Assembly (NCBI GenBank): GCA_030604885.1
Contig: JAUVUZ010000005.1
Coordinates: 62,001 to 126,000, forward strand
DNA from: Alphaproteobacteria bacterium
GTDB taxonomy: Bacteria; Pseudomonadota; Alphaproteobacteria; Rhodospirillales; Rhodospirillaceae
Length of the DNA stretch: 64,000 bases
Direction: 5' to 3'
Part shown: positions 62,839 to 64,000 of the stretch, one piece after another
Numbering within the stretch: position 1 is the stretch's first letter
Layout: each line of letters starts with the position of its first letter
Position numbers and translations under genes: made by a program
Notes under the pieces: generated by a model
The model's database searches: none
Told to the model about the DNA's origin: nothing
What the model saw: only the letters and a program-made list of their open reading frames with translations

Positions 62839-62855
62839 GAAGCTGGAGAGATGAC

Positions 62856-63605
62856 GTGTCAGAGATCCATCTGAACGGCTTAGAAAGCCTTGAAGCACGA
62901 GGTTTTCAAATAGAATTCCATTCCCACGCCAAGGCAATTCTCAATATTGACTATCCCTCTTTGTTAGAGGAGTTGGAAACGACTCTGACGGGACTTTCTA
63001 TCCCTATTGAGTCGTTAGTCCGGGGCGGCGGCGGAGAGCACGAAACCACCCAGGGTCTTCGGCGCACACTAGCGGATCTAGGCTGGATTAAGCATAACTT
63101 TCAAATCAGAAAACTCATCGACGGGGTTGAACGCGAATCGACGTCCCACGAAGTCGATCATGTCCGCTCGTCGGGTCTGGGAAAGGTAGCTCTAGAGATC
63201 GAGTGGAACAATAAGGATCCCTTCTTCGATAGAGACCTGGAAAATTTCAAACGACTCCACGCAGAAGCCGCGATCTCCGTGGGCATAATCCTGACACGCG
63301 GCTCCAGCCTTCAAGATCGCATCAAGGACGCGATCTTGCGCTTCGCCCACGAGCGAGACATTAACTCCTATGCTGATCTCGCAGCCTGGATTGAACCGAC
63401 AGGGCGCCAAAAGCAGGCGGTTCAGCGTCGGATGGAATCAAGCTCCTGCTCTTTCGCTGAAGCTTGGGCGTCACAGTTCGTGGCTGACAAATTCGGGCAA
63501 GCAACCACACACTGGCGCAAGCTAGAAGACAGGATCCACCGCGGCGTCGGGAATCCATGCCCTCTTCTGCTGATCGGCATTCCTGACTCTGTAATCGTGT
63601 TCTGA
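62856..63605 (+). CDS. BglII/BstYI-type type II restriction endonuclease
   Basis: This 249-residue protein is hidden in the second half of a longer track ORF. Its centre reads STSHEVDHVRSSGLGKVALEIEWNNKDPFFDRDLENFKRL. This is the PD-(D/E)xK-type active site of the BglII family (catalytic Asp, then E-x-E), followed by AAISVGIILTRGSSLQD. BglII and BstYI cut AGATCT and RGATCY, so a GATC-core target is a reasonable guess. GTG start with GGAG seven bases upstream. G+C is far below the neighbours (26/60 in bases 62881-62940), a sign of transfer. The partner methyltransferase faces it with 8 bases between stops. Confidence 0.85.
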   Translation: MSEIHLNGLESLEARGFQIEFHSHAKAILNIDYPSLLEELETTLTGLSIPIESLVRGGGGEHETTQGLRRTLADLGWIKHNFQIRKLIDGVERESTSHEVDHVRSSGLGKVALEIEWNNKDPFFDRDLENFKRLHAEAAISVGIILTRGSSLQDRIKDAILRFAHERDINSYADLAAWIEPTGRQKQAVQRRMESSSCSFAEAWASQFVADKFGQATTHWRKLEDRIHRGVGNPCPLLLIGIPDSVIVF

Positions 63606-63613
63606 ACGTACCT

Positions 63614-64000
63614 TCACTCTGCTGGAATACGATTCGTCGCGGAGTTGTATGAATATGTCGGCCAGCTTGGGGTATAATCATCTTCAGCTTGATTACCCCA
63701 AGCGCACCAGTTTTCCCGAGTACCCCGGGCAAACATTTCAAGATAAGGTCCAGGACTACAAGCTTCGATTAGATCATATTGCTCATCTGGCTTGCGGGAG
63801 TGTTCCCTCTTACGAGTTCCTAGGTAGTTGACCTGAGTACGACCAGGATCAAGTGTCCGAGCATTCTTCCCACGGACCCCGAAAAGTATCAATTCCGTGA
63901 CGTTGCGGAAATAGAATCCAACTCCACGGCCATCGCTTCCTCCATCTTTACGGAGTTTATGCCAAACCAAGTTGGTTTTATATTCAAACCCCCACGCACG
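63614..64000 (-). CDS. MT-A70-family DNA adenine methyltransferase, C-terminal part (cut by window edge)
   Basis: The last 128 codons of a gene whose 5' end lies beyond the right edge. The frame is open to base 64000 (RAWGFEYKTNLVWHKLRKDGG), so the ORF-track ATG at 63970 is internal. GRGVGFYFRNVTELILFGVRGKN and RKREHSRKPDEQYDLIEACSPGPYLEMFARG, then NWCAWGNQ, are typical of MT-A70-like adenine-N6 methyltransferases. The catalytic DPPW lies outside the window. It probably protects host DNA from the adjacent endonuclease. G+C is low, like its partner. Confidence 0.85.
   Translation of the reverse strand, partial: RAWGFEYKTNLVWHKLRKDGGSDGRGVGFYFRNVTELILFGVRGKNARTLDPGRTQVNYLGTRKREHSRKPDEQYDLIEACSPGPYLEMFARGTRENWCAWGNQAEDDYTPSWPTYSYNSATNRIPAE

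What the first reader, a model, noticed from the sequence alone, without database searches (positions are those of the whole stretch)
62856..64000. Horizontally acquired BglII/BstYI-type restriction-modification pair at the right edge
Base composition drops sharply at 62.85 kb, right after the HIT gene. A BglII-like endonuclease (E-x-D...LEIEWNNKDP) faces, tail to tail with 8 bases between stops, a gene with MT-A70 methyltransferase motifs. The endonuclease is buried in a longer artefactual ORF and starts with GTG, so automatic annotation may miss it. BglII itself is partnered by a cytosine-N4 enzyme, so an adenine-type MT-A70 partner would be notable. Two such genes at a composition break suggest the beginning of a defence or accessory island.
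Basis: partly seen in the sequence, partly recalled or inferred. Interest (0 to 1): 0.7.

Follow-up and report, generated by a model that had tools for sequence, protein, structure and literature searches.

The report
Small acquired RGATCY-type restriction-modification cassette
A bacterium has picked up a tiny self-contained DNA-cutting and DNA-protecting gene pair of a kind already characterised in a deep-sea phage; it is probably a genuine defence cassette, but an ordinary new copy of a known system.

Summary
Window 62856-63605 (+) encodes a BglII/BstYI-family endonuclease (Pfam PF09195, 85 bits). Tail to tail, 8 bases away, lies an MT-A70 methyltransferase gene (63614 to about 64279, running off the window; 101 bits for the full protein).

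The island reading does not hold. The insert is 1709 bp (62839-64547), 51.7% G+C in a 70.7% genome, exactly between two convergent host genes. A same-genus relative has those genes 3 bp apart with no insert; all seven same-genus genomes searched lack both R-M genes. Normal chromosomal genes resume straight after. A third small, ribbon-helix-helix-like gene overlaps the methyltransferase start behind GCATGC repeats: a candidate controller.

The adenine-type partner is the rule: 68 of 80 nearest named loci have MT-A70 beside the endonuclease. The methyltransferase is 71% identical to M.Nph3I, shown to make RG(m6A)TCY, whose partner R.Nph3I cuts RGATCY and is blocked by m6A. Best explanation: a Type II R-M cassette with RGATCY as the methylated site. 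The endonuclease belongs to a subfamily with an extra helical segment of about 48 residues, for which I found no characterised member.

Verdict: new member of a known kind.

The parts
62839..64000 (.). R-M insert; full extent 62839-64547 (1709 bp; runs past the window end; L002:440-2148), bounded by the HIT stop codon and the LysE/RhtB stop codon. Its part outside the window also holds a 65-aa ribbon-helix-helix-like ORF (L002:1846-2043, minus strand) and GCATGC-rich repeats (L002:2055-2102)
   Evidence: G+C 51.7% against 70.7% for the genome sample; relative G001 has the two flanking genes 3 bp apart; ORF and repeats:
62856..63605 (+). BglII/BstYI-family restriction endonuclease, 249 aa, GTG start; predicted catalytic residues D101, E114, E116; helical insert at about residues 155-205
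   Evidence: PF09195; AlphaFold pLDDT 93.7; Foldseek's only significant hits are BstYI, BamHI and OkrAI; invariant residues
63614..64000 (-). MT-A70 methyltransferase, C-terminal part; whole gene 63614 to 64279 (L002:1215-1880, minus), 221 aa, DPPW motif
   Evidence: PF05063 101 bits; 71% identical to M.Nph3I

Best explanation
A compact, horizontally acquired Type II restriction-modification cassette of the Nph3I kind. The MT-A70 enzyme puts m6A on the adenine of RGATCY. The endonuclease, probably a homodimer with the BamHI/BglII/BstYI fold and a D...ExE active site, cuts unmodified RGATCY (or a subset of it) in incoming DNA and is blocked by the methyl group. A small ribbon-helix-helix-like protein encoded ahead of the methyltransferase probably regulates the promoter of its own operon through the GCATGC repeats. 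Shown by computation: protein families, fold, conserved catalytic residues, insertion between two host genes, absence from relatives. Inferred: specificity, methylation sensitivity, activity, dimer form and regulation.
For: PF09195 and MT-A70 matches; model pLDDT 93.7 with significant fold matches only to BstYI, BamHI and OkrAI; catalytic residues invariant in 61 homologues. The methyltransferase is 71% identical over 203 residues to M.Nph3I, shown in vitro to methylate RGATCY to RG(m6A)TCY; R.Nph3I, encoded next to it, cuts RGATCY and is fully inhibited by m6A (PMC10734518). Our endonuclease is 30% identical to R.Nph3I. MT-A70 adjoins the endonuclease in 68 of 80 nearest named loci. An A. baumannii BglII/BstYI-family R-M system also makes m6A:RGATCY:3 and restricts transforming DNA (PMC10287943). 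Insert and empty site.
Against: No assay or methylome. R.Nph3I lacks the roughly 48-residue helical insert of our subfamily, so cleavage specificity is extrapolated over 30% identity. RGATCY is not selectively avoided in this genome compared with relatives lacking the system (observed/expected 0.69, against 0.83 and 0.64), so there is no independent sign of long-term activity. No convincing promoter was found by a sigma-70 scan, which does not cover other promoter types.
Confidence: 0.85

Rival explanations
1. The endonuclease has a narrower specificity than its methyltransferase (for example AGATCT only), with the helical insert adding contacts, while the methyltransferase covers all RGATCY.
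For: The insert is specific to this subfamily; BglII reads AGATCT while R.Nph3I reads RGATCY within one family (PMC10734518).
Against: Nothing observed shows a narrower site; the catalytic region matches R.Nph3I closely (ALEIEWNNKDPFFDRDL).
Confidence: 0.1
2. The pair is a decaying or silent remnant: intact frames but not expressed or not active.
For: No RGATCY avoidance beyond relatives; low G+C against a high-G+C host; no recognisable promoter.
Against: Both frames are full length with invariant catalytic residues, and a controller-like ORF is kept ahead of the methyltransferase.
Confidence: 0.05
3. It is the edge of a larger defence or accessory island.
For: Composition break.
Against: G+C is back near 70% from about 64.5 kb on; LysE/RhtB and ComM-type genes follow, and the HIT-LysE order is kept in the same-genus relatives where HIT was found.
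Confidence: 0.01

Closest known systems
Nph3I R-M system of Nitratiruptor phage NrS-3 (PMC10734518)
   Same: BglII-family endonuclease next to an MT-A70 methyltransferase; methyltransferases 71% identical; shared ALEIEWNNKDPFFDRDL core
   Different: tandem rather than tail to tail; endonuclease 30% identical and without the helical insert; followed by an HTH-type rather than RHH-like regulator ORF
A. baumannii A118 R-M cluster H0N27_10820-30 (PMC10287943)
   Same: BglII/BstYI-family endonuclease with an adenine methyltransferase; m6A:RGATCY:3
   Different: has an HTH regulator between the genes; a similarly arranged Acinetobacter plasmid system seen here uses a D12-class enzyme, not MT-A70; the class of the A118 enzyme itself was not tested here
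BglII and BstYI
   Same: endonuclease fold family (PF09195; Foldseek to BstYI E 8e-7)
   Different: ExE instead of the ExQ seen in BstYI; the commercial BglII and BstYI are not blocked by Dam-type m6A (PMC10287943); the BglII partner is a cytosine-N4 enzyme (own knowledge)
Rhizobium and Xanthomonas plasmid BglII-family/MT-A70 pairs (NZ_CP072159.1, NZ_CP011164.1)
   Same: same tail-to-tail arrangement, same insert-bearing endonuclease subfamily (59% and 55% identity)
   Different: plasmid-borne; no homologue of the 65-aa ORF found

Membership tests
BglII/BstYI endonuclease family (PF09195) | profile match above the curated cut-off | tested here: met
   85.2 bits against 26
BglII/BstYI endonuclease family (PF09195) | BamHI/BglII/BstYI-type PD-(D/E)XK fold | tested here: met
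   only BstYI, BamHI and OkrAI reach E < 0.001
BglII/BstYI endonuclease family (PF09195) | cleavage at a GATC-core palindrome | not testable with these tools
   inferred from R.Nph3I and the partner's specificity
MT-A70 methyltransferases (PF05063) | profile match and DPPW motif | tested here: met
   101 bits against 23.9; D32-P33-P34-W35 invariant
Type II R-M system | adjacent endonuclease and methyltransferase genes with conserved linkage | tested here: met
   68 of 80 nearest named loci carry MT-A70 near the endonuclease
Type II R-M system | endonuclease blocked by the partner's methylation | not testable with these tools
   shown for the Nph3I pair only (PMC10734518)
Defence or accessory island | several further defence or mobility genes in the same low-G+C block | tested here: not met
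   only one small extra ORF before host genes
C-protein-controlled R-M systems | controller of the HTH type | tested here: inconclusive
   the candidate has no Pfam match and looks RHH-like: strand segment plus two helices in its homologue's model of modest confidence; C proteins are described as HTH (PMC3874152)

The most novel reading that the evidence does not exclude
An RGATCY-type R-M cassette whose timing is set by a ribbon-helix-helix controller instead of the usual helix-turn-helix C protein, with an endonuclease subfamily whose helical insert changes site choice or methylation sensitivity.
Probability: 0.15. Interest if true: 0.4.

Novelty: new member of a known kind. Interest (0 to 1): 0.2.

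Why it matters
It gives a clean filled-site/empty-site pair for a minimal acquired R-M unit in a high-G+C host, and shows that m6A-type MT-A70 partners are standard in one large branch of the BglII family, so BglII's cytosine-N4 partner is not representative of that branch. It also makes DNA uptake by the strain predictable: Dam-methylated DNA from E. coli should be protected.

Tried and rejected
Larger island to the right: rejected. RGATCY avoidance as evidence of activity: relatives without the system show similar ratios. Selection for a self-target site: an RGATCY site at the KDP codons is present in 46 of 94 endonuclease genes, but GAT at that Asp (48) is near the number expected from codon use (44.1), so it is not enriched. 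Terminal inverted repeats of the insert: one 26-nt imperfect pair, weak (35 of 2000 shuffles score as high), and the left-end motif occurs once in the genome, so no transposon is claimed. tRNA integration site: none found. The NCBIfam scan gave no match for either protein; PADLOC matched only the methyltransferase. Sequence search of the endonuclease alone against PDB gave no relative; a profile gave BstYI weakly; only the fold search was clear.

Full report
What is there. The window is bases 62001-126000 of contig C3 of a 3.37-Mb genome, so the finding could be followed past the window edge. The endonuclease gene is 62856-63605 (+), GTG start, 249 aa. Pfam gives Endonuc-BglII at 85 bits, E 5e-24. 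The converging methyltransferase gene ends 8 bases further on and starts at about 64279; the full 221-aa protein matches MT-A70 at 101 bits, and PADLOC calls it a Type II methyltransferase.

Acquisition. The low-G+C block is the stretch between the HIT stop codon and the stop codon of the converging LysE/RhtB gene: 1709 bp, 51.7% G+C. Third-position G+C is 0.59 (endonuclease) and 0.43 (methyltransferase) against 0.93-0.96 in the neighbouring HIT, LysE and ComM-type genes. In the close relative G001 HIT and LysE are 3 bp apart. Seven same-genus genomes, some of them incomplete, have neither the endonuclease family nor this methyltransferase. The endonuclease family is sporadic: 8 of 61 genomes among relatives and 10 of 399 across the phylum. 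The other same-genus relatives have about 300-1000 bp between HIT and LysE, once with an unrelated small gene, so the spot is variable but not an island.

No island. To the right come LysE/RhtB, a ComM/YifB-type gene and other ordinary genes (ComM named from its sequence, not from a family search), with G+C back near 70%. No tRNA is near.

A third component, outside the window. On the methyltransferase strand a 65-aa ORF (L002:1846-2043, equal to window positions 64245-64442 if the window went on) overlaps the methyltransferase start by 35 nt. [quoted passage not shown] A homologue stands directly upstream of MT-A70 in Roseomonas oleicola and models as a strand segment plus two helices, with pLDDT of 90 or more for residues 31-60 but modest overall (73.6). 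GCATGC-rich repeats lie just before it (L002:2055-2102): all 6 strand matches to GCATGCNNGCATG in the 20-kb locus fall there, and none of 200 shuffles reaches 6. A similar stretch precedes the Roseomonas gene. Pfam has no match. It was not found in the other 316 genomes searched in the order, and no other locus examined has it. The controller role is inferred.

How the endonuclease is built. The AlphaFold model (pLDDT 93.7) has significant Foldseek matches only to BstYI, BamHI and OkrAI. D101, E114 and E116 are invariant in 61 homologues and align with the active-site region of BstYI, with ExE where BstYI has ExQ. Compared with R.Nph3I the subfamily has about 48 extra residues, helical in the model, before the conserved FGxATTHWxKL motif.

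Partners across the family. Among the 80 nearest named loci, 68 have an MT-A70 gene nearby, 8 a C5-cytosine methyltransferase instead, and 4 none (one of these near a contig end). The C5 loci lie within the MT-A70 branch of the tree, mostly with modest support, so the partner appears to have been exchanged. In 7 of the 8 C5 loci a second endonuclease of the same superfamily faces the first, head to head: close to BstYI in three (for L029, E 3e-71 to the BstYI structure), more diverged in four.

Function by comparison. M.Nph3I (MT-A70 by Pfam) is 71% identical to the methyltransferase here. Zhang et al. 2023 (PMC10734518) showed that it makes RG(m6A)TCY and that R.Nph3I cuts RGATCY and is blocked by m6A. 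An Acinetobacter BglII/BstYI-family system makes m6A:RGATCY:3, limits transformation, and is bypassed by Dam methylation (PMC10287943). Together these make RGATCY the expected methylation site here, and RGATCY or a subset of it the expected cleavage site.

What does not help. RGATCY is under-represented in the host sample, but relatives without the system show similar ratios. The insert ends carry only a weak inverted repeat. A review describes some R-M units with imperfect terminal inverted repeats as mobile (PMC3874152), but that is not established here.

Conclusion. A genuine, horizontally acquired, compact Type II R-M cassette; a new member of a known kind. Its two mildly unusual points, the RHH-like candidate controller and the helical insert of the endonuclease, are open and testable.

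Noticed in passing
L029:1563-4813, L032, L033, L044, L047, L052, L070: Two endonucleases of the BglII/BstYI superfamily, head to head, beside one C5-cytosine methyltransferase. The second endonuclease is BstYI-like in three loci and a more diverged type in four. This might be two enzymes sharing one methyltransferase, or a heterodimer; not resolved.
   Followed up: partly
L028, L034, L035 (Nitrospirillum): Endonuclease of this subfamily with no methyltransferase of the tested types within about 4 kb in three related genomes.
   Followed up: partly
L142, L143 (Herbiconiux and Arthrobacter plasmids): Close MT-A70 relatives (about 68-69% identity) without a BglII-family neighbour but next to an AAA ATPase gene; possibly a different defence system.
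   Followed up: no
L019 (phage NrS-3) and 45 other endonuclease genes: The RGATCY site inside the endonuclease gene, which the Nph3I paper read as meaningful for self-protection, falls on the codons of the conserved KDP motif; its frequency across the family is about what codon use predicts.
   Followed up: yes
L104-L108 (same-genus relatives), HIT-LysE gap: The gap between the convergent HIT and LysE genes varies from 3 to about 1000 bp among relatives, with an unrelated small gene in G007 and a possible remnant of one in G004.
   Followed up: partly
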